A stretch of 64,000 nt of DNA from Diplosphaera chodatii (Eukaryota > Chlorophyta > Trebouxiophyceae > Prasiolales > Stichococcaceae), in contig JAALGY010000062.1 in assembly GCA_032358165.1 (NCBI GenBank), forward strand, positions 248,001 to 312,000. The letters run 5' to 3'. Positions within the stretch are counted from its first letter, which is position 1. Each line of letters starts with the position of its first letter. The translations under genes and the position numbers were made by a program. Positions 1 to 44,466 of this stretch are shown one piece after another. The notes below the pieces were generated by a model. The model saw nothing but the letters and a program-made list of their open reading frames with translations, made no database searches and was not told the DNA's origin.

Positions 1-3000
1 AGCCCGCCGCCGTCACCGCCACCAAAGCCTCCTCCCAGCCCGCCGCCAAAGCCCCCTCCAAGCCCGCCGCCATCCCCACCACCCAAGCCTCCTCCATCCC
101 CGCCGCCCAAGCCGCCCCCAAGCCCGCCACCGTCACCGCCACCCAAGCCGCCTCCTTCACCACCACCCAAGCCACCTCCCAGGTACAGCGCACCTGGATG
201 ACCATGATTGATTGCGTCTGCACATCTGCTGCGACTCCCCTGCAGTGCGCTGCAGTGCAGCCCCACCTTCGCATGCAGCAGAAACGACCCTCCCAACACT
301 CGTATGTACATGATGTCTGTCGTGCACCCTTGACATCTCCTGAGCGTGACCGTGTCGCATTTGCAGCCCACCGCCCTCACCTCCGCCCAAGCCGCCCCCA
401 AGCCCGCCCCCCAAGCCACCCCCCAGGTGCAGCGTACATTCATGTTCAGCACCAGAGCCATTTTGCGTCGCAGGTGCCATCACGTCATACTTCCTTCCAT
501 CCCTTTCGTGATACTTGCCCTGCTGAGTCATCTCGGGTGATTGCATGCAGCCCACCACCCTCGCCGCCTCTGACGCCCCCTGACCTGAGGATGACGTCGC
601 CGCCGCCGAAGGCTGGCACGCCGCCGCCTCTGGCCGTGTCGCCGCCGCCAAAGGCTGGCACGCCGCCGCCTCTGACGCCGCCTGACTTCCGGGGCACCTC
701 ACCACCGCCAAAGGCTGGCACACCGCCGCCGCCGAAGACCAGCCCGCCGCCGCCAGTCAAGAAGTGCTACCCCAAGAAGCAGTGCAAGTGGTACGGCAAG
801 CACAAGAAGTGCACCTACCAGACGCCGTGAGTCCCCTACTCCCCTGCTTTTGCACTACACATGCGCTGCTGTGCTCAGTGGCAGCGTGTCATCAATTGCT
901 GGCCTGTTTGACTCGCATGTGCTCACCACACTGCAGTCCACCATGCTTGACGCAGCTTTCGGCGGTGTGCAGGTGCCCGTACTGCTACAAGACCCTGGAC
1001 CAGTGCTTCAGCTGCAGCGCGTGCGACAAGAAGAAGCCAGGCTACGGCAAGGTGTGCTGTCAAGTTCGCAGTTCAGCGCTGTCTGACCTGCACAAGCATG
1101 TGGAGCGTTGCTGCAGTGTATGGTACACATCCAGCACTTAGTGTTCGTTATCCAGTTCGTAATGCACATGCTGCCAGCACACCATTCGAAGCGAGTTCTG
1201 CTTATGACACGGGCCGGCTGCTGCGTGCTGCAGGTGGTTCTGAAGGCGAAGAAGTGCTTCAAGAAGTCCGTGACGTTTGCCGCTGTCAGCTACGTTGACG
1301 GTTCTGGCACACCCGTCTGCGCTGACAACTCGTGCGTGACCCTGGCTCCCTGAACTGCGTTGCCATGGCGCATCACCTCATATGCTGTCCAGTGTTCCGA
1401 TGATGCTAGCGTGGGTCACACCTCAAGCAGGCATGACAGTAACACCACTCTGTGGTTCATGGTGCAGGAAGCACAGCTACGACCGGCTGGCACGCGAGGA
1501 GAGCACCTTCAAGTTCAGCGCCCCGTGCGGCTCTGTTGTCACGCTGTACCTGGTTGACGACTCGTTCTACAACCAGAACGGCCCGCTGTACCTGCGCAAG
1601 AACCCGTGCAGCAGCAAGTGCGACAAGTCGAAGCCGTGCAGCACGTGCGGCCCGTACACCTTCACAGTCAAGTGCCCGCCTGGGTGCAAGAAGGCGCCGC
1701 CGCCCGCCCTGAAGGCGCCGCCGCCCAAGTCATCGCCGCCGCCCCTGACACCGCCTGACTTCCGGGGCACCTCGCCGCCGCCCAAGGCTGGCACGCCGCC
1801 GCCGAAGGCCGGCACGCCGCCGCCTCTGACACCCCCTGACTTCCGGGGCACCTCACCGCCGCCCAGCAGCCCGCCGCCGTCGCCGCCGCCCAAGCCCCCT
1901 CCAAGCCCGCCGCCCAAGCCTCCCCCAAGCCCACCCCCCAGCCCGCCGCCGAAGCCGCCCCCCAGCCCGCCACCCAAGCCTCCTCCAAGCCCACCGCCGA
2001 GCCCGCCACCAAAGCCACCCCCAAGCCCGCCGCCTAAGCCACCTCCGAGCCCGCCGCCGTCACCGCCACCCAAGCCACCTCCCAGGTACACGCAAAACCG
2101 AATCACACGCCACTGTCTTGCTGGGCTCATATAGTGCCCCTGGAGTTACTTCATTCCCTGGAGTTACGCTCTGGACCTGGTGAGCTCTTGTATGGTGCCT
2201 GTGCACATGTCCTCTTGCCTGAGTCCAGATTGCTGCAACTGCAGCCCACCGCCGTCGCCGCCACCCAAGCCGCCCCCAAGCCCGCCCCCCAAGCCACCTC
2301 CCAGGTGCAGTATGATGTTGAAGTCAGCACCTGTATGCATTCGTTGGGTGTCTCACCTGCCCTGGAAGTCCCAATCCTCACAAGCCTGCTGCACTACTTG
2401 ATTCACCGTCATTGCTTGCATGCAGCCCACCACCCTCGCCGCCTCTAACGCCCCCTGACCTGAGGATGACGTCGCCGCCGCCGAAGGCTGGCACGCCGCC
2501 GCCTCTGGCCGTGTCGCCGCCGCCAAAGGCTGGCACGCCGCCGCCTCTGACGCCGCCTGACTTCCGGGGCACCTCACCACCGCCAAAGGCTGGCACACCG
2601 CCGCCGCCGAAGACCAGCCCGCCGCCGCCAGTCAAGAAGTGCTACCCCAAGAAGCAGTGCAAGTGGTACGGCAAGCACAAGAAGTGCACCTACCAGACGC
2701 CGTGAGTCCCCTACTCCCCTGCTTTTGCACTACACATGCGCTGCTGTGCTCAGTGGCAGCGTGTCATCAATTGCTGGCCTGTTTGACTCGCATGTGCTCA
2801 CCACACTGCAGTCCACCATGCTTGACGCAGCTTTCGGCGGTGTGCAGGTGCCCGTACTGCTACAAGACCCTGGACCAGTGCTTCAGCTGCAGCGCGTGCG
2901 ACAAGAAGAAGCCAGGCTACGGCAAGGTGTGCTGTCAAGTTCGCAGTTCAGCGCTGTCTGACCTGCACAAGCATGTGGAGCGTTGCTGCAGTGTATGGTA

Positions 3001-6000
3001 CACATCCAGCACTTAGTGTTCGTTATCCAGTTCGTAATGCACATGCTGCCAGCACACCATTCGAAGCGAGTTCTGCTCATGACACGGGCCGGCTGCTGCG
3101 TGCTGCAGGTGGTTCTGAAGGCGAAGAAGTGCTTCAAGAAGTCCGTGACGTTTGCTGCTGTCAGCTACGTTGACGGTTCTGGCACACCCGTCTGCGCTGA
3201 CAACTCGTGCGTGACCCTGGCTCCCTGAACTGCGTTGCCATGGTGCATCACCTCATATGCTGTCCAGTGTTCCGATGATGCTAGCGTGGGTCACACCTCA
3301 AGCAGGCATGACAGTAACACCACTCTGTGGTTCATGGTGCAGGAAGCACAGCTACGACCGGCTGGCACGCGAGGAGAGCACCTTCAAGTTCAGCGCCCCG
3401 TGCGGCTCTGTTGTCACGCTGTACCTGGTTGACGACTCGTTCTACAACCAGAACGGCCCGCTGTACCTGCGCAAGAACCCGTGCAGCAGCAAGTGCGACA
3501 AGTCGAAGCCGTGCAGCACGTGCGGCCCGTACACCTTCACAGTCAAGTGCCCGCCTGGGTGCAAGAAGGCGCCGCCGCCCGCCCTGAAGGCGCCGCCGCC
3601 CAAGTCATCGCCGCCGCCCCTGACACCGCCTGACTTCCGGGGCACCTCGCCGCCGCCCAAGGCTGGCACGCCGCCGCCAAAGGCTGGCACACCCCCGCCC
3701 CTGACACCCCCTGACTTCCGGGGCACCTCACCGCCGCCCAGCAGCCCGCCGCCGTCGCCGCCGCCCAAGCCCCCTCCAAGCCCGCCGCCCAAGCCTCCCC
3801 CAAGCCCACCCCCCAGCCCGCCGCCGAAGCCGCCCCCCAGCCCGCCACCCAAGCCTCCTCCAAGCCCACCGCCGAGCCCGCCGCCTAAGCCACCCCCAAG
3901 CCCGCCGCCTAAGCCACCTCCGAGCCCGCCGCCGTCACCGCCACCCAAGCCACCTCCCAGGTACACGCAAAACCGAATCACACGCCGAACGCCACTGTCA
4001 TGCTGGGCTCATATAGTGCCCCTGGCGTTATTTCATTCTCTGGAGTTACGCTCTGGACCTGGTGAGCTCTTGTACGGTGCCTGTGTACATGTCCTCTTGC
4101 CTGAGTCCAGATTGCTGCAACTGCAGCCCACCGCCGTCGCCGCCACCCAAGCCGCCCCCAAGCCCGCCCCCCAAGCCACCTCCCAGGTGCAGTATGATGT
4201 TGAAGTCAGCACCTGTATGCATTCGTTGGGTGTCTCACCTGCCCTGGAAGTCCCAATCCTCACACGCCTGCTGCACTACTTGATTCACCGTCATTGCTTG
4301 CATGCAGCCCACCACCCTCGCCGCCTCTGACGCCCCCTGACCTGAGGATGACGTCGCCGCCGCCAAAGGCTGGCACGCCGCCGCCTCTGGCCGTGTCGCC
4401 GCCGCCAAAGGCTGGCACGCCGCCGCCTCTGACGCCGCCTGACTTCCGGAGCACCTCACCACCGCCAAAGGCTGGCACACCGCCGCCGCCCAAGACCAGC
4501 CCGCCGCCGCCAGTCAAGAAGTGCTACCCCAAGAAGCAGTGCAAGTGGTACGGCAAGCACAAGAAGTGCACCTACCAGACGCCGTGAGTCCCCTACTCCC
4601 CTACTTTCTTGCTACACACATGCTGCCAGTGCTTACTGCGCCTGCTGCAACATGTCATCAGCCGATGGGCAGTTCCATTTCTGCATGTGGTCACGCAGCT
4701 TTCGGCGGTGTGCAGGTGCCCGTACTGCTACAAGACCCTGGACCAGTGCTTCAGCTGCAGCGCATGCGACAGGAAGATGCCAGGCTATGGCAAGGTGTGC
4801 TGGCAAGGTTGCAATTCAGCGCTGTCTGACCTGCACAAGCATGCGGAGCGTTGCTGCAGTGTGTGGTAGCTGGCACACCTAGCAGTCTTTTCGCAATCAG
4901 GTGGTGATCCACATGCTGCCAGCGTACTCTCCGGAGCGAGTGCTGTTCTTGACACTGGCCCACTGCTGCATGCTGCAGGTGGTTCTGAAGGCGAAGAAGT
5001 GCTTCAAGAAGTCCGTGACGTTTGCCGCTGTCAGCTACGTTGACGGCTCTGGCACACCCGTCTGCGCTGACAACTCGTGCGTGACCCTGGCTCCCTGAAC
5101 TGCGATGCCACAGCGCATCACCTCGTATGCTGCCCAGTGTTCGTATGCTGATGATGCTAGCATGGGTCACACCTCAAGCAGGCATGACAGTAACACCACT
5201 CTGTGGTTCATGGTGCAGGAAGCACAGCTACGACCGGCTGGCACGCGAGGAGAGCACCTTCAAGTTCAGCGCCCCGTGCGGCTCTGTTGTCACGCTGTAC
5301 CTGGTTGACGACTCGTTCTACAACCAGAACGGCCCGCTGTACCTGCGCAAGAACCCGTGCAGCAGCAAGTGCGACAAATCGAAGCCGTGCAGCACGTGCG
5401 GCCCGTACACCTTCACAGTCAAGTGCCCGCCTGGGTGCAAGAAGGCGCCGCCGCCCAAGTCATTGCCGCCGCCCCTGACACCGCCTGACTTCCGGGGCAC
5501 CTCGCCGCCGCCGAAGGCTGGCACGCCGCCGCCGAAGGCCGGCACGCCGCCGCCTCTGACACCCCCTGACTTCCGGGGCACCTCACCGCCGCCCAGCAGC
5601 CCGCCGCCGTCGCCGCCGCCCAAGCCCCCTCCAAGCCCGCCGCCATCACCACCACCCAAGCCGCCCCCAAGCCCGCCACCCAAGCCTCCTCCAAGCCCGC
5701 CACCGTCGCCGCCACCCAAGCCCCCTCCCAGCCCGCCACCCAAGCCACCCCCAAGCCCGCCGCCGTCACCGCCACCCAAGCCACCTCCCAGCCCGCCGCC
5801 ATCCCCGCCTCCCAAGCCACCCCCCAGCCCACCGCCATCGCCACCACCCAAGCCTCCTCCTTCACCACCACCAAAGCCACCTCCCAGGTACATGCAAACT
5901 GATTAACACTGAAGGGTGCCAGGGCTTGTCAGTGCTCTGCTCACATGCTAGTTTCTCCCGCTGTGCTCGTCAGGCCCTCAGTGTATATCAGACGTGCATG

Positions 6001-10287: not shown

Positions 10288-13200
10288 ATGCCGGGGGCTG
10301 TCATTCCATCAGCCACAGCGCCCGCGCTGCTGGCGCTGCTCCTGCTGCTGGGCGCCGCGCTTCCAGGTGCAGCCATGCTGCATGTCTGGTTGTAGTGCAG
10401 TAGCAGCCTGCCAAGCGGCAGCTGGCTCTGGAGGCCACGGGCACATGCGTGCTGGGAGCGTCACCCAGCTAGCGCGCGCCCTGGCTGCTGTGCATAGAGT
10501 GCTCGTGCATTGAGACGCACCTGCTGCCCGCGTTTGCGCAGGTGCTGACGCGGGAACCATCGCCACAACGAATTGCGATGCCCTGCGCCCCATGGACGGC
10601 GGCACGCTGCGGTCCACCTGCACATGCGACGGCCAGCCCCAGAACGGCAAGAGCGCCTGCCCCACCACCCCCGCTCAGAACGCGACGTGCGTCTGCAGCA
10701 CCGGCGCTGGCGCAGTCAGCATGACGTCGTCGGTCGTCACCGTCACGAACTGCTTTGGCAAGAAGATCAGCTTCTTGAACGCGGAGTACGTGAGCGCGAG
10801 CAACACTAAGATGTGCACCCCCAAAGCGTGAGCGCCATTGTGCCCTTGCTCCCACCCGTTTGAGCTCCCAATAACAGCAGGCAGAGCGTGCACTGTGGAC
10901 ATGTGCCTGTGCACTTGTGCGCTGGCACTGCGCAGCGGCTCGACTACTGCTGGTGGTCCATGGGCTTCTGTGTGCCTTGCATGCAGGGAAAACAAGAACG
11001 CTGGTGATACAGTGTTCACGTTTCCGGCCAAGTGCGGCACCACGGTGACGATCTACCTGCACGACGGCAACTACATCACGCCTGCTGGGGGACCCGCAGT
11101 CCTGGGCAGCACCTGCCAAAGCAGCTACACGAACAGCCAGCTGTGCAACAGCTGCGGGGGATACTCGTTCACCGTGAAGTGCGATGGCAGTGGTGACTCC
11201 TGCTACCCAGCTCAGAAGAGGTGAGCAGCATGCCAGCTGACAATCAGCCCTGACGCCTCGTTCGCTACAGGGCTGCTCTGCAACACGTCAGCTTTGATCA
11301 TGCCTTGCCTTGAGCGACCGCCCAATGTGTTGCACATGTACAGACTTGCTTTGACGTGTGTCGATGCAGCCCGCCGCCCCCTCCCAGTCCGCCTCCATCG
11401 CCGCCGCCCTCTCCTCCACCGTCGCCTCCGCCGCCGTGTCCCCCACCCAAGCCTCCGCCAAGCCCGCCACCCAGCCCGCCTCCCTCGCCGCCGCCGCCAT
11501 CGCCTCCACCCAGCCCACCGCCCAGCCCGCCACCAAGCCCGCCTCCCTCGCCGCCGCCGCCATCGCCTCCACCCAGCCCACCGCCCAGCCCGCCACCAAG
11601 CCCGCCTCCCTCGCCACCACCCTATCCGCCGCCTTCACCACCACCCAACCCGCCTCCGTCACCGCCGCCCCAGCCTCCTCCCAGCCCCCCGCCAAGCCCG
11701 CCGCCAAGCCCGCCACCAAACCCACCTCCATCACCGCCGCCCAATCCGCCCCCATCACCACCACCTCAGCCTCCTCCCAGCCCACCGCCCAGTCCGCCGC
11801 CACAGCCGCCCCCCAGCCCGCCTCCTTCGCCGCCGCCTGCACCACCGCCCAGCCCACCGCCCAGTCCGCCACCACAGCCTCCGCCAAGCCCACCGCCACA
11901 GCCGCCCCCCAGCCCGCCTCCTTCGCCGCCGCCTGCACCACCGCCCAGCCCACCGCCCAGTCCGCCACCACAGCCTCCGCCAAGCCCACCCCCACAGCCA
12001 CCCCCCAGCCCCCCGCCATCACCACCCCCGCAGCCGCCGCCCAGCCCACCTCCCATGCCGCCCCCGAGTCCGCCACCCCAGCCGCCTCCCAGCCCGCCAC
12101 CTTCACCGCCCCCTCAGTCGCCACCCGACCTCAGGTTTGCTGTGCCACCGCCAAGCAGCCCACCACCGCAGCCGCCACCCAGCCCGCCTCCATCACCACC
12201 GCCCAGCCCACCTCCGTCACCGCCGCCTGCGCCACCGCCCAGCGCACCTCCCATGCCGCCACCTAGTCCGCCACCCAGCCCACCCCCGAGCCCACCACCC
12301 CAGCCGCCGCCAAGCCCGCCACCGCAACCGCCACCAAGTCCGCCCCCACAGCCACCTCCCAGCCCCCCGCCATCACCACCCCCATCGCCGCCACCCAGCC
12401 CGCCTCCCGTGCCACCCCCCAGCCCGCCACCGCAGCCACCACCCAGCCCGCCGCCCTCACCACCACCCAGCCCACCCCCCAGCCCGCCACCTTCGCCACC
12501 ACCCGGCACGCCAGACTTCCGGATGGCAATGCCGCCCCCCAGCAGCCCACCACCTTTGCCACCGCCAAGCCCTCCGCCATCGCCACCCCCAAGCCCTCCG
12601 CCTTCGCCACCCCCAAGCCCTCCACCTTCGCCACCCCCCAGCCCGCCTCCTTCACCGCCGCCTGCCCTACCACCCTCACCACCTCCGAGGTGCAGATCCT
12701 CAACGCATGGTGCTCAGAATGTGGCGTATGCCCAAGATGTGTGCGTCCTCCAATGCTCCGGCCAACTATGCCCCTTATCATCATCTCAGTTCTCTGGGAT
12801 GCAGCAAGGCATGCACTTGAGGCACTCAGTCCGCAGGCGGGATCCTGGACCACAGTTGCAATGTGGTTCTGTCCTTTGCAGTCCACTTCCTTCGCCGCCG
12901 CCTCTCACGCCGCCAGACCTCCGGGTGACCTCACCGCCGCCGCTGGCTGTGTCACCGCCGCCGCAGAGTGTGCCGCCGCCGCCGCCGAAAGTGTGCAAGC
13001 CGAAGAAGCACTGCAAGTGGTACGGCGACAAGCAGAAGTGTACCCAGCAGACGCCGTGAGTCCTCTGGCGTGTCGCTGCTGATGTCAATCTGTTGCAATG
13101 CTCAAAAAACCCTACTGCATCTCAGTGCCTTTTCCTGCACACGGCTGAACATTCTCACGAGCCGAGTGATGGGCTGCACTGCAAAGAGGCACTGCTGCAG

Positions 13201-16200
13201 ATCATAATGCGCACCAGAACGCACATGCTGCGCAGGTGCCCATACTGCTACCAGACTCTGGATCAGTGCTTCAGCTGCAGCGAGTGCAGTAAGAAGCAGC
13301 CTGGCTATGGCAAGGTGCGCTCCCAGCCATGCAAACAGTGCCTGCAGATGTACACGTGCTGCTGGACCCAGCTGATAGTTGTGGCCAACTTGACGGACCT
13401 GGTGTTAGCAGGGCTGCCGCTGTGCTGTGCGTTATGTTGTCAGGACGAGGCTGACAGGATTGCTCGGTCAACTGCTGTCCCAGGTTGTCCTGAACGCCAA
13501 GCGGTGCTTCAAGACATCGGTCACATTCGCCGCCGTCAGCTACATCAATGAGTCTGGCTCCTCCGTCTGTGCTGACAACCGGTGCGTGCCGTCAGCTGTC
13601 TATCCTGCTGCTTCGTTCTGCGACTGTGCAAAGTGACCACCAGAAGCCTTAACAATCCATTGGCGCTATGCTGACCGTGTGTTGATACCCATGCCCGATT
13701 GCACAGGAACTTCGGCTACAACGATCGCGAGGCAGCCAAAGAGAGCACCTTCAAGTTCAGTGCCCCCTGCGGGTCCACCATCACGCTGTTCCTGGTCGAC
13801 GACTCGTTCTACAACCAGAACGGCCCGCTGTACCTGCGCAAGAACCCGTGCAGCAGCAAGTGCGACAAGTCGAAGCCGTGCAGCACGTGCGGCCCGTACA
13901 CCTTCACAGTCAAGTGCCCGCCGGGGTGCAAGAAGGCGCCGCCGCCCGCCCTGAAGGCGCCGCCGCCCAAGTCATTGCCGCCGCCCCTGACACCGCCTGA
14001 CTTCCGGGGCACCTCGCCGCCGCCCAGCAGCCCGCCGCCGTCGCCGCCGCCCAAGCCCCCTCCAAGCCCGCCGCCATCACCACCACCCAAGCCGCCCCCA
14101 AGCCCGCCACCCAAGCCTCCTCCAAGCCCGCCGCCGTCGCCGCCACCCAAGCCCCCTCCGAGCCCGCCACCATCCCCACCACCCAAGCCCCCTCCGAGCC
14201 CGCCACCATCGCCGCCGCCCAGCCCGCCACCATCGCCGCCACCCACCCCGCCACCATCGCCGCCCCCCAAGCCTCCTCCCAGGTATGTGTGCATGGCCTG
14301 CAAGCATTCTTGCCCATGAGCTGCAGGGTGGACGTGACAGTGTCGACTGCTGTGCATGCATGTTGACACGGCTGCACCTCAGCGTTGTTGCAAGTAGCTG
14401 TGCAGATCTGACCAACATGAGATCGGATGCAACATGCAGCCCGCCGCCATCACCTCCGCCCAAGCCGCCCCCAAGCCCACCACCCTCCCCACCACCCAGG
14501 TGCAGCTACAATCAAGGGTTCATTGAGCCTGTCAGCTGCTTAAGAGCTTCTTGCTACAGCTGTAACCTCTTCAGAGGCCTGAGGCATCTGCCAGCAGCTT
14601 CATGAAACGCTGGATCACCTGCGCATGTGCTACTTTGCTGAGCGCTGCCGCATCCTTCACTTCATGCAGCCCACCGCCCTCGCCGCCAGCCCTGACGCCG
14701 CCAGACCTCAGAGTCACATCACCACCGCCAAAAGCTGTTTCGCCGCCGCCAATGGCTGTGTCACCACCGCCTCTAACGCCACCTGACCTCAGAATGACCT
14801 CGCCGCCGCCAAAGGCTGGCACGCCGCCGCCGCCTGCGAAGAAGTGCTACCCCAAGAAGCAGTGCAAGTGGTACGGCAAGCACAAGAAGTGCACCACCCA
14901 GACGCCGTAAGTCCTCCACTCCTCTCAACCTCGGTGTTGATGCTGCACTCTGACTGCGCCTTTCTATGCGGTGTGGCTTCTCTTCCTGTGCTTGATACAC
15001 GGACCCTCGCAGGTCGTTCCCTGTAGGAAGAGTGCGTGCTGCATCAAACTGTCGGAGGCCATCAATCTTTATGCATTGCAGGTGCCCGTACTGCTACAAG
15101 ACCCTGGACCAGTGCTTCAGTTGCACCGAGTGCAACAGGAGGAAGCCGGGCTATGGCAAGGTGCGCTTATCTTCATTGCAGTCTGTGTTTCGGGATGTCT
15201 TGTCGGATGGGCACTGTTTGTATGGTTCAGGGGAACCCTGCCAATGTGTGTTGCTGAACCCATCGTGTAGGTCGTCCTGAAGGCGAAGCGGTGCTTCAGG
15301 AAGTCGGTCACGTTTGCCGCTGTCAGCTACATTGACGAGTCTGGCTCGTCGGTCTGTGCTGACAACCGGTGTGTGCTGTCAGCTGTCTGTCCTGCTGCTT
15401 CTGCGACTGTGCAAACTGACCACCAGAAGCCTTAACAATCCAACGGCGTGATGCTGACCGTGTGCTGATACCCCTGCCCGGTTGACAGGAACTTCGGGTA
15501 CAACAACCGTGAGGCAGCCAAGGAGAGCACCTTCAAGTTCAGCGCCCCCTGCGGGTCCACCGTCACGCTGTTCCTGGTCGACGACTCCTTCTACAACCCA
15601 AATGGCCCCCTGTACCTGCGCAAGAACCCGTGCAGCAGCACGTGCGACAAGACCAAGCCATGCAGCACATGCGGCCCGTACACCTTCACAGTCAAGTGCC
15701 CGCCGGGGTGCAAGAAGGCGCCGCCGCCCGCCCTGAAGGCGCCGCCTCCCAAGTCATCGCCGCCGCCTCTGACACCGCCTGACTTCCGGGGCACCTCGCC
15801 GCCGCCCAGCAGTCCGCCGCCCAGCCCGCCATTGTCACCACCGCCATCGCCACCCCCCAGGTGAGCCCCCGGCTACAAGACTGCCTTCAACCCTACGGCC
15901 ATACATATCGCCTGCATTTGAGGTGCCTGATAGGCGGCCGTGCCTTCAGTCACTGACTGACTGCGGAGACCTTCTGCTGTGTGCCCTCTCATGCTATTCT
16001 CTGCTGCACTGACGGCGCGGCTTGTGCAAATCATGCAGCCCAGCACCATCCCCGCCTCCCAAGCCCCCTCTTTCACCTCCCCCAACCCCACCTCCGAGGT
16101 CCGACTTGCTGACTTCTTCACTACCTTTCTGTGACATTGCACAGTACATGTCACCTGTAGCCCCCTGCGATGCTGCGTTGATGAAAGTTGCCGACAGCCC

Positions 16201-22274: not shown

Positions 22275-25200
22275 ATGGCGGGTGCGGCGGCGCGCCCAGC
22301 CACGGCAGTGGTGCTGGTGGCGTTGCTCGTGGTGCTCAATGCGGCGCTTCCAGGCACGCTGCTGGGCACAGCCCCTGTGAAGTGCGCACGCATCATTGTG
22401 CATCAGTCCGCGCCACTGCTACAGAGCGCAGCGCCATGTCCGACAGGCCTGGGCTGTTTTCGAGACGAGGCAGCCTGCAGTGATGGCCACGCACGCACTT
22501 GATGCACCGGCTACTCGTGTGCAGGTGCTCATGCCGCGAACTGCAACATGGTCAACCCGCCCGGCGGAACGGGTGGTGGCAACAACAGGGCCACCTGCAC
22601 GTGCGATGGCATGGTTGGCAGAATGGAGAAGGCCTGCCCCATCACACCCTCGCAGAATTCGACATGCGTGTGCAGCAGCGGCGCGGGCACAGCCTCCACA
22701 ACCACGGCCACCGTCACCGTCAAGAACTGCTTCGGCACGCCGGTCGACTTCATGACCGTACAATATGTGAATACGGCCGGCAGCGCTATGTGCACCAGAT
22801 CGACAGGGTGAGTGGCGTCCCTTCCACCGAACACTTGAATCGAGTCGATGTGCAAGTGCTCTCATTATGCTCCGTGCCACCAGCAGCTTCGATTGCATCC
22901 CACACCTCCATCGATGGCACAAGGCGGCGTTCTACTCACTGAGGTTGTGCTCATGTCTCCCATTTGCAGGAACAGTGTGGCTTCTGGAGCCACGCCTTTC
23001 AGTTTCACGGCCAGATGCAACTCTACCGTGACGATCTTCTTCAAGGACGACAGCTACAATGCACCCAGTGGAGGACCCGACGTCCTGGCCAGCCAGTGCG
23101 CCAACCAGTACAACAATAACGAGCTGTGCAAGAGCTGCGGGGGCTATGACTACAAAGTTCAGTGTGACGGCGGCGGGGACAGCTGCTTTGCGGCACAGAG
23201 GTCCCCACCGCCACCGCCGCCATCGCCGCCGCCACACCCGCCTCCCTCCCCGCCACCCAAACCCCCTCCTCCTTCACCACCACTGAGCCCGCCACCCTCG
23301 CCACCACCCAAGCCGCCCAGCCCGCCGCCCAGCCCGCCGCCAAGCCCGCCACCCTCGCCGCCGCCGCCATCGCCACCACCCAGCCCGCCGCCCAGCCCGC
23401 CACCAAGCCCGCCACCCTCGCCGCCGCCGCCGCCACCACCCAGCCCACCGCCCAACCCGCCACCAAACCCGCCTCCCTCCCCGCCACCCTATCCGCCGCC
23501 TTCACCACCTCCCAACCCACCGCCCTCGCCACCACCTCAGCCTCCACCCTCACCGCCGCCGCAACCTCCTCCCAGCCCTCCGCCAAGCCCGCCACCGAAC
23601 CCGCCTCCATCACCACCACCCCAGCCTCCTCCCAGCCCTCCACCAAGCCCTCCACCAAGCCCGCCACCAAACCCTCCACCCTCACCGCCGCCGCAGCCTC
23701 CTCCCAGCCCTCCGCCAAGCCCGCCACCGAACCCTCCACCCTCACCGCCGCCCCAGCCTCCTCCCAGCCCGCCGCCAAGCCCGCCACCGAACCCGCCTCC
23801 ATCACCACCACCCCAGCCTCCTCCCAGCCCTCCGCCAAGCCCTCCACCGAACCCTCCACCCTCACCGCCGCCACAGCCTCCTCCCAGCCCTCCGCCAAGC
23901 CCGCCACCGAACCCACCACCCTCGCCACCACCTCAGCCTCCCCCGTCACCGCCGCCGCAGCCTCCTCCCAGCCCTCCGCCAAGCCCGCCGCCAAGCCCGC
24001 CACCAAATCCACCTCCATCACCGCCACCCAATCCGCCCCCATCACCACCACCTCAGCCTCCTCCCAGTCCACCGCCCAGTCCGCCGCCGCAGCCGCCGCC
24101 CAGCCCGCCGCCCCAGCCGCCACCCAGTCCGCCCCCACAGCCGCCTCCCAGCCCCCCGCCATCACCACCCCCATCGCCGCCACCCAGCCCACCTCCCATG
24201 CCGCCCCCGAGTCCGCCACCCCAGCCGCCGCCCAGCCCGCCGACCCAGCCGCCGCCAACCCCACCACCACAGCCGCCACCCAGTCCGCCCCCACAGCCGC
24301 CTCCCAGCCCACCTCCATCACCGCCGCCTGCGCCACCGCCCAGCCCGCCACCCCAGCCGCCGCCCAGCCCGCCTCCCCAGCCGCCGCCCAGCCCCCCGCC
24401 TTCGCCACCCCCTCAGTCGCCACCGGACCTCAGATTTGCCATGCCGCCGCCCAGCAGCCCGCCACCGCAGCCACCGCCCAGCCCGCCACCACAACCGCCT
24501 CCCAGCCCGCCACCACAGCCGCCGCCAAGTCCGCCACCGCAGCCGCCACCGAGCCCGCCTCCGTCACCACCACCTGCCCCACCACCAAGCCCGCCGCCCC
24601 AGCCGCCGTCAAGCCCGCCACCACAGCCACCTCCCAACCCGCCACCTCAGCCTCCGCCCAGCCCACCGCCCAGTCCGCCGCCACAGCCGCCCCCCAGCCC
24701 GCCTCCTTCGCCGCCGCCTGCACCGCCGCCAAGCCCACCTCCCAGTCCGCCACCACAGCCTCCGCCGTCACCTCCGCCCAAGCCGCCGCCAAGCCCACCG
24801 CCATCTCCGCCACTCAGTCCGCCACCCCAGCCGCCGCCAAGCCCACCGCCACTGCCACCCCCCAGCCCCCCACCATCTCCACCCCCAAGCCCTCCGCCGT
24901 CGCCACCCTCCAGCCCTCCACCATCGCCACCCCCCAGCCCCCCGCCATCTCCACCCCCAAGCCCTCCGCCTTCGCCACCCTTCAGCCCTCCGCCATTGCG
25001 ACCTTCCAGCCCACCACCTTCACCACCGCCTGAATCGCCACCCGACCTCAGATTTGCTATACCGCCGCCAAGCAGCCCACCACCACAGCCACCGCCCAGC
25101 CCGCCGCCTGCACCATCCCTCAACCCGCCACCGCAGCTGCCGCCTAGTCCGCCACCACAGCCACCGCCTAGCCCGCCTCCTTCGCCTCCACCGCTGCCTC

Positions 25201-35277: not shown

Positions 35278-38200
35278 ATGGAGGCGTACGCAACGTTTGT
35301 GACGATTCTGGACGCGCTGCTCAGCATCTTCATTGCTCTGAGCGTCATCGTGGCCATCGACCGTGCGCTGTTCACAGCCCGCTACGCCTATATGCAGGTG
35401 CAACGCAGTGCCCCTTCGCCCACTCTATGTGAAGCTGCGCAATGCGTCCATGAGATGCTGCTGCGAGCGTTTTCGTGCGTTGAAGATGCGAAATGTTGGG
35501 AAGCCGATGCTGTCTGCAGCTCACCACACAGGCAACGACCTGCAACTGCGCTCATTCGAATGGCTGATGTACCCACTTCGCAGATGAGGATCTGGAGCAC
35601 AGGAAAGAAGCCAGAGGAGCACTATCCCTTTGCCACGCTGCCGGACGCCAAAGTCTGCGGCATGTTGTACCCCATGTGCGCGGCCTCTTGCATCCATTGA
35701 CATTTATACGTGCCAGCTGCACGATGTAACACATCGCAAGCAGTGCTGTCGTTGATGCGAACGGTCTGACGTGCCTGCAGGGTGGTAGTCCAGATCCCCT
35801 GCTGCAATGAGCGCGGCGTGTGCCAGGTGCTGCCCGAGTCACCGCATGCTGTGTGCCCTCATTGCAGCTGCACTGACGTCGCGCTCCAGTGCAGCTGCCC
35901 AGCATGCTGGTACTCCGTTGCACGCTGTACGCGCACCTCCAGCTGAGACAGCAGTGCTGAGGTGTAGATCAACATGCGCGCAGGTCGCCATCGACCATGT
36001 CGCGGCATTTGACTGGCCACGGGACCGCCTCATCATCCAAATCTGCGACGACTCCGAAGACCAGGTGTGGCTATCGGTGTGTTCCTGCACTTGTGAGTGC
36101 CTTCAGCTGCACGGAATCTTGACCGCGCCAAGCGTGAGTGGTGTGCCGCGTGCGGTTGACGCGGCCTCCGACCTGACCGTGCATGTTGACCTACACGGCC
36201 CAGGTGACCAAGGACATGATCGACGACAAGGTGGCCGAGTGGCTGGAGGCCGGGACCCGCATCGAGTGCATGCGCCGTGGCAACCGCGTCGGGTACGCCT
36301 GCTGTCCATGCACGATGCGATGGCAGGGACATGCACATGTCACCGGCCAGACGTCCCTTGTGTGGCAGCCTCTTGTTGCTTGGGTTTCATGCACAGACCT
36401 GAGATCCTTGCCCACTGCTCCCCTGCTGGGAAGTGCGTGGTAACGATGCAGCAGGGCATCAAGCGATGGAGATGTGAGTGAATGTCTGAGTGCAGGTACA
36501 AGGCGGGTGCCCTGTCGTATGGCATGAAGCTCTTCGGCGACACCATCGACTACGTGGCGGTGTTCGACTCCGACTTCCAGCCCAGCCCCTCCTTCCTGCG
36601 CGACCTCATACCCTACCTGGTCGCCAACCCAACAGTCGGCTGGGTTCAGGTGAGCCACCACTGCTGTGTGGACTCGACCAGATCACCATGCATACAGGAT
36701 AGCATGGTTTGGCAGATCAGTTGGCTTTGTCAACTGTGTACATAGCTGCTGAGGTGGCATTGCCGGCTGCTGCAGAGCCGCTGGATATTCACAAACCCGG
36801 ACGAATCATACCTGACGAAGGTGAGCGCGCCCTGCAGCAGGCTGCCGGCACCCCGTAAGGAGTGTAGTTCTCAGAAGTGCCATGACTTCTGTCCGTTCAG
36901 CTGACAGTCCGACTGCGGCATGTCAACAGATTCAAGTTGCCGTGATCTGACACCGTGCAGGCCCAGCAGCTCAGCCTGAACTACCACTTCAACTGCGAGC
37001 AGCGCGTCTGCTTTGCGACGGGGACATACTTCGGCTTCAATGGTGACCAATCCTGAATGTGTTCCTCTCCTCATCCAGCTTCTGCAATGCCTTTATGGGC
37101 TGTGTCCTGTCGTGATGCAGTGTCACAATGGCACACCGTGTGTGGGGAGGCTGCATGTGACGACTTCTGCCTTCATGCGCCAGGCACGGGCGGCATCTGG
37201 CGGCGCACCTGCATCGAGAACATCGGCGGCTGGAACCACCGGACTACAGTCGAGGACATGGATCTGTCACTGCGCTGCCACCTCGCGGGCTGGAAGTGCA
37301 TCTACGTCAATGATGTCACGTCCTGGAACGAGGTGAGGCCAGAGCCGTTCGAGCACAGTGTACCTTGGTGCTCAACAGCCAGGGCACCAGGCTGTGAGGA
37401 CTCCCATCCCCACGCCATGATAGCACAGCAGCCTCCAGCGCTGAAGTCGGTAACTGATGCCCTGCAGCTGCCTGCTAGCCTGTTCGCCTACCGCAAGCAG
37501 CAGCACCGCTGGAGCGCCGGCCCCACGCAGCTCATCAAGCTGGCGATGCGTGAGGTGTGCAGCGTAGCGCAGTGTCAGCACTGGCGCAAATGCCATCCCA
37601 ATCCAAACCAGGATAACGGTTGATGGGCGTGCGAGGCTTCAGACATGTCTGGTCGTGACTGACATGCAGTGCATGGTTGGCCAGGCGCACAGAAGCATTG
37701 CCAGGAGCCATCATAACATATGTCTGGACATCGCAGGTGCTGGACGCCAAGATCGGCGTCATGCAGAAGCTGGACATCCTGGTCTGCTGCTTCGGTCTCA
37801 GAAAGGTGCTCAAACAACGCAAAGGGCGGGCCGCGTACTTGTTTGCTGTGTGTCGTGTGAAGCAGCACAACTCGATAGTGCACATGGCATGGTTTGTCAG
37901 GCTCATGCTGTCGTGATACACCTGCAGATGGCGACGCACTTTGTCACACTTGGCTTCTTCTGCCTGCTGCTCCCATTGGCCATCGTCACTCCTGAGGTAC
38001 TGAAGCAGTGCGACCCAGTCCAAGCACGCGTGACAAAGTGCCTTCAGAATCATGGACATGGCTCTGGTCACTGCAAGTGTGTGCTGGTGTCATGGCCTAT
38101 CAACCCTGCATTTCATGGCCTTGCAGATTACGGTGCCGATCTTTGCAATCGTGCACCTGCCGTCCATTATCACCCTGTCCACCGCCTGGTTTACACCCGG

Positions 38201-40768: not shown

Positions 40769-43700
40769 ATGGCGGCCAGCGGGCGCAGCTTCCGCACGTT
40801 CATCAGCCACGCTGGGCCGCAGAAGGACGGCGTCGCGATGCTGCTGCAGCGCGAGCTGCAGCGCAACGGCGTAAGCGCCTTTCTGGATGAGACCAGCCTG
40901 CGGCTCGGCGACGCGGCGCCCGCCGAGATGGAGGCCACGCTGCGAAGCGCACGCATCGTGGTCGCCATCCTGACACCAGACTTCCTGGACAGCGAGTTCT
41001 GCATGGAGGAGCTGCACTGGGCGCTGCACCCAGCAGAAGATGTGGCGCAGCCGCCGAATCTATTGCCAGTGTTCTACAGCAGCAACAATGTGCGAGAGCT
41101 GGTTCAGCTGATCGATGCGAAGATCAGCACGGCCGAGCAACAGCACAAGCGTGCAGAAGCTGTGTATGCCGCATCTGTGGGACAGACATTTCAACGCGAT
41201 AAAGATGCCGAGCTAACCCCTCATCAAAAGGAGTTGTCGGCGGAGGCAGACAGATGGGCGGAACAGCTGCGACGGCTTGGCCAGAAGAGGGTCAACCTTG
41301 ACGCAGCCACCAAGCGCACGGGCACCCGCCCTGACTCCTTTGGCAGGTGACCGCCACCCCTGGGAACTGCAGGCATGCTGTCGTTAGGCACTGTGGGGAC
41401 ATCATCAGATCAGCACCTCAATAGCTAACTTCTGCTGTTGCTTGCCAAGCAGGGGCGACCCGACGCTGGTGAATGCCATTGTGACAGAGGTGCTGCGGCG
41501 GCTGGGCCAGACTCAGCTCAGGGTGCCGGAGGCGGCGGTGGACCTCGAGGAGCGTGCGGCTAAGCTGCTGCCATGGTTCGAACGTGGCGATGTGCGCGTG
41601 CTCAGCCTCTGGGGCATGGGTGGTGTTGGCAAGACAACACTGGCGATCAAGCTGTTCAACGCTGTCAGCAGCAGCAGCACAATGCACTTTGACAGGCGTG
41701 TGTTCCTGACAGTCGGGCAGACGGCTCTGAAGCAGTCAGCGCTGGCAAACCAGCAGCGAACGCTGATTGTGCTGCTGGCGCCCGAAGCGCAAAACCTCGG
41801 CGGCGGGCCGCAGCAAGACGCGCAGCTGGCGGACTGCATCAGGGAGAGCGGGCCATTGCTATTGGTGCTTGACGACCTGTGGTCAGATGCGCAGCGGCGA
41901 TTGCTGCTGCCTTTGTCAGTGGACCAGCTGCCGCGCGGCAGCCGCGTGGTCCTGACCAGCCGACACCAGCGGCTGCTGCTGAGTGATACCATCGCCAATT
42001 GCTGCCTGGCGCCCGTGCGCTGCCTCCAGCCGACCGCGGCAAGCGAGCTGCTGTGCAAGCGTGCGGCCATATCGCAAGCAGAGCTGCCCAGGCTTGCGGA
42101 GGTGGTGCGTGCAGCGCTGGAGGTGTGCTGTGGCCTGCCGCTAGCGCTGGAGGTCGTTGGCTCTGCTCTGCGTGGCTCGTCCCCGCAGGCCAAGCTGGTA
42201 CGTTTGCTCATGCAGGTCTTAATCACTGCTACATGCCCAAGTTGATGTATCAAACCACCCTGTGACTTGTAACCCAGTGCTTCATAGAGGCAAGGCACGT
42301 TCCAAACATCGCTTCGTCAGTGAGCAACAGTTCGGTTGACAGCTTGGGCTCACTGTTTCGTATAGGATGATATGAGGGACTTGCTCAGAGGCACATATGC
42401 CAGCCGCGGTGAAGTTGATGGCAAGGAGCCCAACCTGCTGGGTGGGCTGCAGTGGAGCTACGACCGCCTGCCAACACACCAGCACAGGTGCAGCACTGAC
42501 CATTGTGGAGCTTACTCTGTACTCAAATGTTTGAGCATTGCAGGTTGCTGTGTGTTACATGCCTTTAGTGGTGAGACCATTATGGCGTCCGTGATCTCGG
42601 TCTCGAACAGGTCAGCATTCTAGGGAAACTGGCTGATGCGACCCTACCTGTGCTTGATTCGCAGACAGATGTTCCTGGACGCTGCCCTGATGCTGCGCAA
42701 CCACCAGTATGGTCACCTGGTTCACACCTGGGCATGCCTACTGGAACAGCCCCGCCTGAAGTTTCGCGCGCTGCCCATGTCGCTTTGCAAGCGGCTGGAC
42801 GCAGCTGGGCAACTCTTCAACGACCTGACATGTGCCTCACTCATTGAGTGCGGCAAAGATGGCAGGTGGGCCTGTCTACAGTTTACTGCATACCTTGTCT
42901 GCAGAGAGCTCGTAAGGCTGCGATAACCTGCGATTTGTGGTTCTGGCCACAGGGTAACCGCATGTTATTGCAGAGGCAACATATTCGATGACATGATGAC
43001 TGTAGCTTTCAACACTTGTGTAGGACCGAAGTGCACGACTGCCTTGTAGAGATGGCAGTGGAGGTCGTGCAAAGCAGCAATCTGCCAGCTGGCTGGTCTA
43101 TCAGCGATGTGGCCGCAGTTGATGCAGTGCTGCCAGAGGTAAGCGGTTGCAAGCACATGCCGTGTAGCATGCTTGCTGGCTTGTTGTCAGAGCTGTGATT
43201 CACCACAATGCTGATCCACAACGATCACCGACCTCGCAGGTTGAAACATGCGCATCAGCCACTCGTCTATGCTGCCCGCCACATGAAGCTGGCACCTGCG
43301 GGCCGCCAGCCTGGGCTGTTCAGGATTGCCTCAGCCGCCATCAAGGTGCACAGCTTGCGGCAATAGATGTCCAGCAGACAGCTGTGGCTCCGATAGCCGG
43401 CGGTGCGCACTGCCACGCGCCCCCGCACCTGGTCTACCTGCGCCTTGCGACGGCACATGCGGCCTGCATGGTCGGCATGGGAGGCAAGCTGGCGGTGCTG
43501 GAACTGACATCGCCTAGCGGCAACCTGCTGGAGGTGCCTGCCAGCATCAGCAGCATCCAGAGCCTGGCCTGGCTGTCATTCGATGGATGTGGCGGCTTGC
43601 AGGCTCTGCCGCCCAGCATCAGCAGCTTGCCAGCCCTTGCCCAGCTGGGCATTGCCAGCTGCCATGGGCTGCAAGAGCTAAGCCTGCGTGGCTTCATGTG

Positions 43701-44466
43701 CCTGCGCAAGCTCTGCTTCGCCAGCTGCCATGGCCTGCAAGCACTGCTGCTGCACGGCTGCCAGAGCTTGCAGCAGCTGCAGCTCGACGGCCTGCCCAGC
43801 CTGCGGCAGCTGACATTGCGGGAATGCGCAGCGGTGCAGCAGCTGCCGTCCGGATTCGACGCACTGACAGCCCTGCGCTGCCTGGAGGTCGTGGGCTGCC
43901 ATGCGCTGGAGCAGTTGCCAAATGACATGGGCGCTGCGCTGACGCGTCTCCACCTCAGCGGGTGCAGCCGCCTGGCATCGCTGCCCCCCGGCCTGAGTCT
44001 TCATGAACGTCTCCAGCAGCTCGAGCTGCATGGCTTGGATGCTCTCCAGAAGATGCACATCGACGGCGCTGCCAGCCTGCGCCACTGCAGCGTAACATCA
44101 TGCGCCCGCCTGGTGGTGCTCAGCATGCACAGGTGCCACTGCTTGCGTCGGCTCGACCTGCAGCAGCTGGACCAGCTGCAAGAGCTCGAGCTGTACCATT
44201 GCGGCGCCTTCGTACAGCTGCTGCCTGGAGTCGGCGGCTTGACAGAGCTGCGACGGTTGAGCGTCACCTTCTGCGGGGCGCTGCAGCGGCTGCCAGACAG
44301 TGTCTTCCGGTTGCCCCGGCTGCGGGAGCTCAACATTGGCGAGTGCCCGGCGCTGCAGCTGGATGACAGCCAGCTGCGACGCTCGCAGGCCCTTCACAGC
44401 TTCTGCAGATTATCGAGAGGGATGAGCCTTGCAGACGCAATGGCATCGCTCCGGGCACCAATATAA
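40769..44466 (+). CDS. TIR-NB-ARC-LRR (TNL) NLR immune-receptor-like protein
   Basis: Six exons: 40769-41346, 41453-42197, 42366-42487, 42665-42865, 43024-43138, 43240-44466; 2988 bp, 995 aa, all phases agree. The TIR domain is exon 1: FRTFISHAGPQ (8-18), AFLDETSLRLGD (37-48, BB-loop), FCMEELHWAL with Glu81 at the place of the catalytic glutamate of NAD-cleaving TIRs, then LPVFY. NB-ARC is exons 2-5: P-loop GMGGVGKTT (247-255), kinase-2 LLLVLDDLW (328-336), GSRVVLTSR (355-363), CGLPLALEVVG (419-429), MFLDAAL (484-490), VHD (552-554, MHD position). The C-terminal 400 residues are Cys/Leu-rich LRRs of the LxxLxLxxCxxLxxLP kind. In plants such proteins sense pathogen effectors and the TIR makes NAD-derived signals. 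Here function is inferred only. No membrane segment or signal peptide. It is convergent with the LRR gene at 45617. Confidence 0.9.

What the first reader, a model, noticed from the sequence alone, without database searches (positions are those of the whole stretch)
40769..44466. Complete TIR-NB-ARC-LRR gene in a green alga
The gene model is intact over six exons with every diagnostic motif: TIR BB-loop and candidate catalytic Glu81, P-loop, kinase-2, GLPL, VHD and a 400-residue LRR. TNLs are textbook land-plant immune receptors; only a minority of chlorophytes are thought to have NLRs. Exon layout (TIR alone in exon 1, most of NB-ARC in exon 2, LRR in the last exon) resembles land-plant TNLs. 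This suggests either an ancestral TNL or a conserved fusion route. The sequence next to a large extracellular-matrix gene cluster makes a surveillance role in an alga worth testing.
Basis: partly seen in the sequence, partly recalled or inferred. Interest (0 to 1): 0.9.

Follow-up and report, generated by a model that had tools for sequence, protein, structure and literature searches.

The report
Algal TIR-NB-LRR genes beside EDS1-type genes
The gene is a complete plant-style immune receptor of the TIR-NB-LRR type in a green alga, one of about 25 in its genome, and several of its sisters sit back to back with small, apparently membrane-anchored proteins that carry the core of the EDS1 signalling domain usually said to occur only in seed plants.

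Summary
Window 40769-44466 encodes an intact six-exon, 995-aa TIR-NB-ARC-LRR protein with the named motifs. It is one of 25 NB-ARC matches in this 85.6-Mb genome, and 25 of 25 have a TIR match just upstream. One paralogue has TIR, NB-ARC and LRR in one uninterrupted frame, so the TIR-NB join is real in the family. TNLs in a chlorophyte are already published (PMC7145615), so this part is a new member of a known kind. Of the nine that are stand-alone EP genes, six lie head-to-head with a TNL, one with a TIR-STAND gene, one with a TIR-EP gene; one partner was not read. Eight of eight scanned EP frames show no lipase and 7 of 8 have an N-terminal hydrophobic helix. The match is to the EP core, best to PAD4 (4.5e-12). 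One 2019 sentence mentions 'EDS1 genes' in the C. zofingiensis cluster; later papers call EP seed-plant-only. The window TNL has no EP neighbour and sits on a long branch. Function is untested.

The parts
40769..44466 (+). TIR-NB-ARC-LRR gene, coding part, six exons, 995 aa
   Evidence: in-frame joining with GT-AG introns; Pfam; exon 6 frame supported by paralogue L026
40769..41346 (+). exon 1: TIR domain with Glu80/81 in CMEEL
   Evidence: TIR_2 1.7e-18 on the exon; the xxEL Glu is present in 25 of 25 TIR exons
41453..42197 (+). exon 2: linker and most of NB-ARC (P-loop, kinase-2, GLPL)
   Evidence: NB-ARC 1.6e-25 on 41454-42194; motifs
42366..42487 (+). exon 3: end of the NB-ARC match
   Evidence: NB-ARC match runs to aa 474
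42665..42865 (+). exon 4: region between the NB-ARC match and the VHD motif
   Evidence: tblastn matches to aa 482-544 or so in paralogues such as L027, L028, L031
43024..43138 (+). exon 5: VHD (MHD-like) motif
   Evidence: L026 has VHD at the same place
43240..44466 (+). exon 6: linker and leucine-rich repeats
   Evidence: LRR_14, LRR_RPS2 and other LRR families; matches in 24 of 24 paralogue loci
37057..37620 (+). upstream neighbour, same strand: glycosyltransferase family 2 exon
   Evidence: PF13632 5.7e-10; no match in the window to the algal EP profile at E 0.1

Best explanation
The window gene is an intact member of a 25-gene TNL family of a chlorophyte alga. Like plant TNLs it most likely senses a non-self or damage cue through its LRR, exchanges nucleotide in its NB-ARC, assembles its TIRs into an NAD-cleaving enzyme and so makes a nucleotide messenger (inferred). 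In this alga the messenger is most likely read by small EP-domain proteins, without a lipase half and mostly with an N-terminal membrane helix, whose genes are paired head-to-head with several TNL sisters and with other TIR genes; binding would make the EP protein act at the membrane without an RPW8-type helper (inferred). The window gene has no EP neighbour of its own and would have to use EP proteins encoded elsewhere. Shown here: gene structure, family, EP-core homology, gene pairing, no RPW8 match. Inferred: enzyme activity, messenger, binding, output.
For: TNL identity; TIR match upstream of 25 of 25 NB-ARC matches; a single 838-aa open frame with TIR_2 2.2e-15, NB-ARC 1.4e-20 and LRR_14 1e-13 in L044; Glu in 25 of 25 TIRs; ROQ1 the best solved relative, TIR and NB both matched. 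EP: Pfam EDS1_EP up to 1.5e-11, over the cut-off in 8 of 8 own stand-alone EP frames scanned; a profile of six algal EPs finds PAD4 4.5e-12, EDS1 6.6e-11 and SAG101 2.9e-4, EDS1-family chains being the top 13 of 14 PDB sequences at E up to 1; 10 loci over Pfam's cut-off. Pairing: of nine stand-alone EP genes 6 face a TNL, 1 a TIR-STAND gene, 1 the TIR-EP gene, 1 was not read; 0.85-2.6 kb from the nearest TIR match. Six or more of nine facing one of 25 TNLs within 3 kb by chance: about 6e-19 if copies were independent, which they are not wholly. One locus carries TIR and EP in one exon series (L054, by eye). Hydrophobic N-terminal helix in 7 of 8 own EP frames. No RPW8 match and none of the 25 NB-ARC matches without TIR.
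Against: 18 of 25 TNLs, the window's included, have no EP gene facing them in these searches. The Pfam matches cover only about positions 34-140 of the 211 of the EP model. The cavity arginine EDS1 R493 / PAD4 R420, needed in Arabidopsis EDS1 but not in PAD4 (PMC6377607), is not kept: 0 of 16 stand-alone EP sequences have Arg there by eye, though the TIR-EP gene does. The TIR-EP gene has a one-base frame break in its TIR exon and the C1:1954 EP gene is also broken, so some pairs may be dead. The window TNL has a long end branch in the NB-ARC tree (1.06 against a median of 0.23), which may mean relaxed constraint. One of 8 EP frames tested (L058) has no clear membrane helix. The EDS1_EP and RPW8 searches had no plant among their control genomes. 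No expression or activity data exist here, and two EP fold predictions were too poor to use.
Confidence: 0.5

Rival explanations
1. A TNL family as described, but signalling without EP: the TIRs deplete NAD or make a messenger read by something else, and the EP proteins are regulated neighbours, decoys or guardees with another role.
For: 18 of 25 TNLs have no EP gene facing them; the Arg that matters in EDS1 is not kept in the stand-alone EPs; TIR outputs that do not need EDS1 are reported (PMC9806590 and PMC11218826, passages seen).
Against: Head-to-head pairing recurs with TNLs, with a TIR-STAND gene and with a TIR-EP gene, and TIR and EP occur in one gene series. That is more than shared regulation would need.
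Confidence: 0.3
2. The pairing is only the by-product of tandem and segmental duplication of one ancestral TNL-EP neighbourhood, with no continuing joint function.
For: The two EP genes of C1 are close copies (end branches 0.016 and 0.042); TNLs are clustered on C51, C14, C24, C1.
Against: Paired EPs are deeply diverged (C24:693 40% identical to C51:111) yet keep order and orientation. A second receptor class, TIR-STAND, is paired too (the 1.4 kb next to that EP gene was not read). Relatives of the EP types occur in metagenome records (P0001-P0007), though their gene neighbours are unknown.
Confidence: 0.15
3. The window gene itself is a drifting or dying TNL copy, although the family is real.
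For: Long end branch 1.06; the only NB-ARC match on its contig, with no EP neighbour.
Against: 995 codons without a stop, GT-AG at all five introns, motifs kept.
Confidence: 0.15

Closest known systems
TNL genes of the chlorophyte Chromochloris zofingiensis (Andolfo 2019, PMC7145615, passages seen)
   Same: TIR-NB-LRR genes in clusters in a green alga; [quoted passage not shown]
   Different: There six CzNLR genes are tabulated, with an operon-like, polycistronic layout; here 25 genes on eight contigs, head-to-head EP partners, EP proteins without a lipase match and mostly with a membrane helix, and a TIR-EP gene. In the passages I saw that paper gives no domain account of its EDS1 genes.
Land-plant TNLs such as ROQ1 and RPP1
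   Same: Domain order, motifs and TIR Glu; ROQ1 is the best solved relative over TIR and NB-ARC
   Different: Intron layout varies within the algal family; NB-ARC no closer to TNL than to CNL structures in this comparison
EDS1 / PAD4 / SAG101 family (EP domain, PF18117)
   Same: EP core with L.EP.DIAN.Y and, in C51:111, GHYLEGNRP exactly as in PAD4 (E 4.5e-12)
   Different: No lipase match in 8 of 8 frames scanned; N-terminal hydrophobic helix in 7 of 8; EDS1-R493-type Arg absent from the stand-alone EPs; rest of the EP model outside the core not matched by Pfam
Bacterial TIR + nucleotide-sensor effectors with membrane helices (Thoeris and CBASS types; recalled, not tested)
   Same: A nucleotide-making enzyme encoded next to a membrane protein with a sensor domain
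   Different: Different sensor folds (recalled); no EP relative found in the bacterial and archaeal genome scan, which used two short patterns

Membership tests
TNL (TIR-NB-ARC-LRR) | TIR, NB-ARC and LRR in one polypeptide in that order | tested here: met
   on the joined window protein; on the uninterrupted 838-aa frame of paralogue L044; no RNA
TNL (TIR-NB-ARC-LRR) | P-loop, kinase-2, GLPL and MHD-like motifs | tested here: met
   (VHD in place of MHD)
TNL (TIR-NB-ARC-LRR) | catalytic Glu of TIR NADases | tested here: met
   CMEEL in the window; xxEL Glu in 25 of 25 TIRs (22 distinct by pattern, L036 and L038, C9:775)
TNL (TIR-NB-ARC-LRR) | NAD cleavage after ligand-driven tetramerisation | not testable with these tools
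   needs protein assays
TNL (TIR-NB-ARC-LRR) | NB-ARC groups with land-plant TNLs | tested here: inconclusive
EDS1 family (sister-locus EP proteins) | EP domain | tested here: met
   Pfam cut-off passed at 10 loci and in 8 of 8 own stand-alone frames scanned, but over the core only; PDB profile search finds EDS1-family chains first
EDS1 family (sister-locus EP proteins) | N-terminal lipase-like alpha/beta hydrolase | tested here: not met
   8 of 8 EP frames scanned gave no lipase match; five further upstream or first-exon frames of L049, L051, L055, L056 gave none either
EDS1 family (sister-locus EP proteins) | cavity Arg EDS1 R493 (PAD4 R420) | tested here: not met
   0 of 16 stand-alone EP sequences by eye; present in the TIR-EP gene
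EDS1 family (sister-locus EP proteins) | heterodimer that binds TIR products and recruits RNL helpers | not testable with these tools
   RPW8 gave 0 matches in the genome (no plant control), so an RNL helper is unlikely

The most novel reading that the evidence does not exclude
Chlorophyte algae carry the stripped-down ancestor, or an independently kept form, of the TIR-EP circuit: a TIR receptor makes the messenger and a lipase-less membrane EP protein, paired with it head-to-head and once encoded in the same gene, is both sensor and executor, so the EP domain as reader of TIR products predates seed plants (or moved between green lineages) and EDS1's lipase half and RNL helpers were added later.
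Probability: 0.35. Interest if true: 0.88.

Novelty: new variant of a known kind. Interest (0 to 1): 0.62.

Why it matters
Papers of 2022-2024 state that EDS1-type EP proteins occur only in seed plants and that TIR receptors arose in lineages without them (PMC10834447, PMC9153377, PMC11218826; passages seen). An alga in which EP genes face TIR receptor genes contradicts that, and a search that keeps only relatives of known EDS1, PAD4 and SAG101 would miss such proteins. It makes testable where the TIR-to-EP signal came from and what the smallest working circuit is, in a protein of about 255 aa.

Tried and rejected
Exon edges: my first set was off by one and gave stops. A seventh exon in the LRR part, with a 29-base intron, was dropped after comparison with L026.

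Pherophorin (PF12499) as a marker of the algal order: 0 matches, and no control rang, so no conclusion. PsbO was used instead. The species was not identified.

Fold of EP: P0002 with seven sequences gave pLDDT 57.6, pTM 0.30, with only the N-terminal helix confident; P0003 with six gave 49.0. Too poor for a fold search, none run.

EP in prokaryotes or viruses: no relative in genome contigs (305 pattern matches, 0 confirmed) or viral contigs (98, 0); short patterns only, so weak evidence.

More TIR-EP genes: only one found. The C10 TIR matches looked like a second candidate series, but the two places that I read (L060, L061 of seven C10 TIR places) show a TIR part plus a STAND-type P-loop; L060's TIR match is below the cut-off.

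C9:786636 as an EP gene: membrane helix and start of EP present, but no EP core in the 1.3 kb read, and 1.6 kb towards its TNL was not read; kept as weak and left out of the six.

The search of the protein database with the EP alignment scored only the 7998 candidates sharing most words, so seven relatives is a lower bound. The gene neighbours of those relatives were not seen.

Paper searches and paper reads 80, 81, 87 failed. That the pairing is little noticed rests on searches and on the passages read; Feng 2024 (Plant J 119:2316) and Shao 2019 were not read.
Full report
What is at the place. Window 40769-44466 (+) holds a gene whose six exons join in frame into 995 aa with GT-AG introns and no internal stop. 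The joined protein matches TIR_2 (3.4e-17, aa 11-118), TIR (9.8e-10), NB-ARC (5.3e-25, aa 235-474) and several LRR families, best LRR_14 1.6e-13. Motifs: FISHAG at 11, FLDE at 38, CMEEL at 78 (so Glu80 or Glu81), P-loop at 247, LLLVLDDLW at 328, GLPLAL at 420, VHD at 552.

A family, not a single gene. The genome (85.6 Mb, 55 contigs) gives 25 NB-ARC matches, all over the cut-off. Each of the 25 has a TIR match just upstream on the same strand, 24 of them by PF01582 and 25 by PF13676; PF01582 gives six further places and PF13676 one, all on C10. tblastn of the window protein (my seven-exon version) finds TIR, NB-ARC and LRR parts in order in 24 of 24 other loci. The TIR Glu is present in 25 of 25: 22 distinct TIRs by pattern (the hit listed there for L042 is the neighbouring TIR of L045), L036 and L038 by eye, C9:775 by eye. 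The NB-ARC tree has two strongly supported groups of 18 (with the window gene) and 7 (C9, C28, C30); the window gene has the one long end branch, 1.06.

Organism. The PsbO of contig C45 scores 432 bits against 6kac, 423 against 8bd3 and 337-349 against 8c29, 5xnl, 9i4t, 3jcu and 5mdx; that the first two are Chlamydomonas and Chlorella and the last five land plants is recalled. GC of the sampled loci on nine contigs is 58-62%, window 62%. A chlorophyte is the fair reading; the species was not identified.

A genome search with Pfam's EDS1_EP domain gave 10 matches over the cut-off, E 1.9e-8 to 8.8e-5; none of the 14 control genomes rang, and none is a plant. A search with one algal EP protein gave 23 exon matches that I group into 11 loci: those 10 and a weak one at C9:786636. 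Gene models for five of them have three exons with in-phase GT-AG introns, four of 254-273 aa and one of 285 aa; another (L050) is a single frame, as are the frames read in L058 and L059. Pfam finds EDS1_EP over its cut-off in 8 of 8 of these frames and no lipase in any; the matches cover about positions 34-140 of the 211 of the model, so it is the EP core that is shown. A profile of six algal EPs against the PDB returns PAD4 (4.5e-12), EDS1 (6.6e-11, chain of 8zf0, a rice complex by PMC12856790) and SAG101 (2.9e-4) as the first 13 of 14 sequences; the fourteenth is a protein named Gp29.2 at 0.017. The core is close to PAD4: 23 of 51 aligned positions identical for C51:111, including GHYLEGNRP; the least similar own copy scores 9 of 23 (C10:3043).

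Arrangement. Leaving out the TIR-EP gene, nine EP genes pass Pfam's cut-off. Six stand head-to-head with a TNL (C51:111, C1:1945, C1:1954, C14:491, C24:638, C24:693), one with the TIR-STAND gene of L060 (C10:3063; 1.4 kb between was not read), one with the TIR-EP gene (C51:126); for C10:3043 the flank was not read. The distance from EP start to the nearest TIR match is 0.85-2.6 kb (C14). The weak C9:786636 place also faces a TNL. So 7 of 25 TNLs, one of them weakly, face an EP-type gene, and 18 of 25, the window's among them, do not. If EP genes fell at random, six or more of nine within 3 kb head-to-head of 25 TNLs has probability about 6e-19; duplication of whole pairs makes this too small. 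The window itself has no match to the algal EP profile at E 0.1; upstream lies a glycosyltransferase-2 gene on the same strand.

A TIR-EP gene. On C51:123264-125083 (-) TIR, linker and EP exons follow each other with splice sites that, read by eye, are in phase, and no stop from the second TIR exon to the end of EP. The TIR part is weak for Pfam (0.0093, below the cut-off) but 40-53% identical over its first 71-122 residues to the C10 TIRs. The first TIR exon has a one-base frame break, so it may be a dead copy or an assembly error. It keeps an Arg where EDS1 has R493. Only one such gene was found.

Membrane helix. 7 of 8 own EP frames have a 19-residue stretch of mean hydropathy 2.35-2.87 within the first 30 residues; L058 does not (1.19 at best). 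The metagenome relative P0002 has one too (2.12) and aligns with C51:111 over residues 1-219 at 33% identity. In the otherwise poor P0002 model residues 6-65 form a helix, with pLDDT block means of 72-94 over the first 60 residues.

How it most likely works. Inferred from plant TNL biology as summarised in PMC10442000 (part 1 of 2 of the text read): sensing by LRR, TIR assembly, NAD cleavage to pRib-AMP/ADP or ADPr-ATP type messengers, which EDS1 dimers bind, by their EP domains according to PMC12856790 (passages). Here no RPW8 match and no NB-ARC match without TIR suggest no RNL helper, and the EP protein is itself mostly membrane-anchored by prediction, so it is the natural candidate for both reader and executor. 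Against: the Arg needed in EDS1 is missing from stand-alone EPs (0 of 16 by eye, numbering; the equivalent PAD4 Arg was dispensable, PMC6377607), and most TNLs lack an EP neighbour.

What is known. TNLs in C. [quoted passage not shown] PMC10834447 searched with lipase and EP models and then kept only clusters holding known EDS1, PAD4 or SAG101, which would drop EP-only proteins. So the co-location is not wholly new, but its form appears to be: lipase-less, mostly membrane-anchored by prediction, head-to-head and once in one gene.

Verdict. The window gene is a member of the family but not itself one of the pairs.

Noticed in passing
window 1-5900, 11422-12305, 14029-14282, 23286-25027: Arrays of proline-rich (Ser-Pro-Pro-Pro type) coding repeats in large open frames, cell-wall-like; no Pfam match in the five frames tried there.
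   Followed up: partly
window 37057-37620: Glycosyltransferase family 2 exon upstream of the TNL on the same strand.
   Followed up: partly
L061 (C10:3080600-3082400) and L060 (C10:3059200-3060700): TIR joined to a STAND-type P-loop (GGPGEGKS; nSTAND3 and AAA_16 below cut-off), a second TIR receptor class; six PF01582 matches 12-18 kb apart on C10 and one more, weak place by PF13676; two of the seven were read.
   Followed up: partly
L054 (C51:121815-125084), - strand: TIR and EP exons in one series, with a one-base frame break in the first TIR exon.
   Followed up: yes
L052 (C1:1952975-1956139): EP gene with frame breaks or a stop, facing the TNL at C1:1956792.
   Followed up: partly
L032 1189-1329 (C51:105788-105928): Weak match (E 0.0015) to the EP membrane helix facing the TNL at C51:104449, perhaps an EP remnant.
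   Followed up: no
L063 (C9:786600-787900): EP-like N-terminus with a hydrophobic helix facing the intronless TNL of L044, but no EP core in the stretch read.
   Followed up: partly
P0001-P0007: EP relatives from public sequence records (sources jgi, ena, lgn), four of them on contigs of 21-219 kb that could show whether other algae keep the TNL-EP pair.
   Followed up: partly
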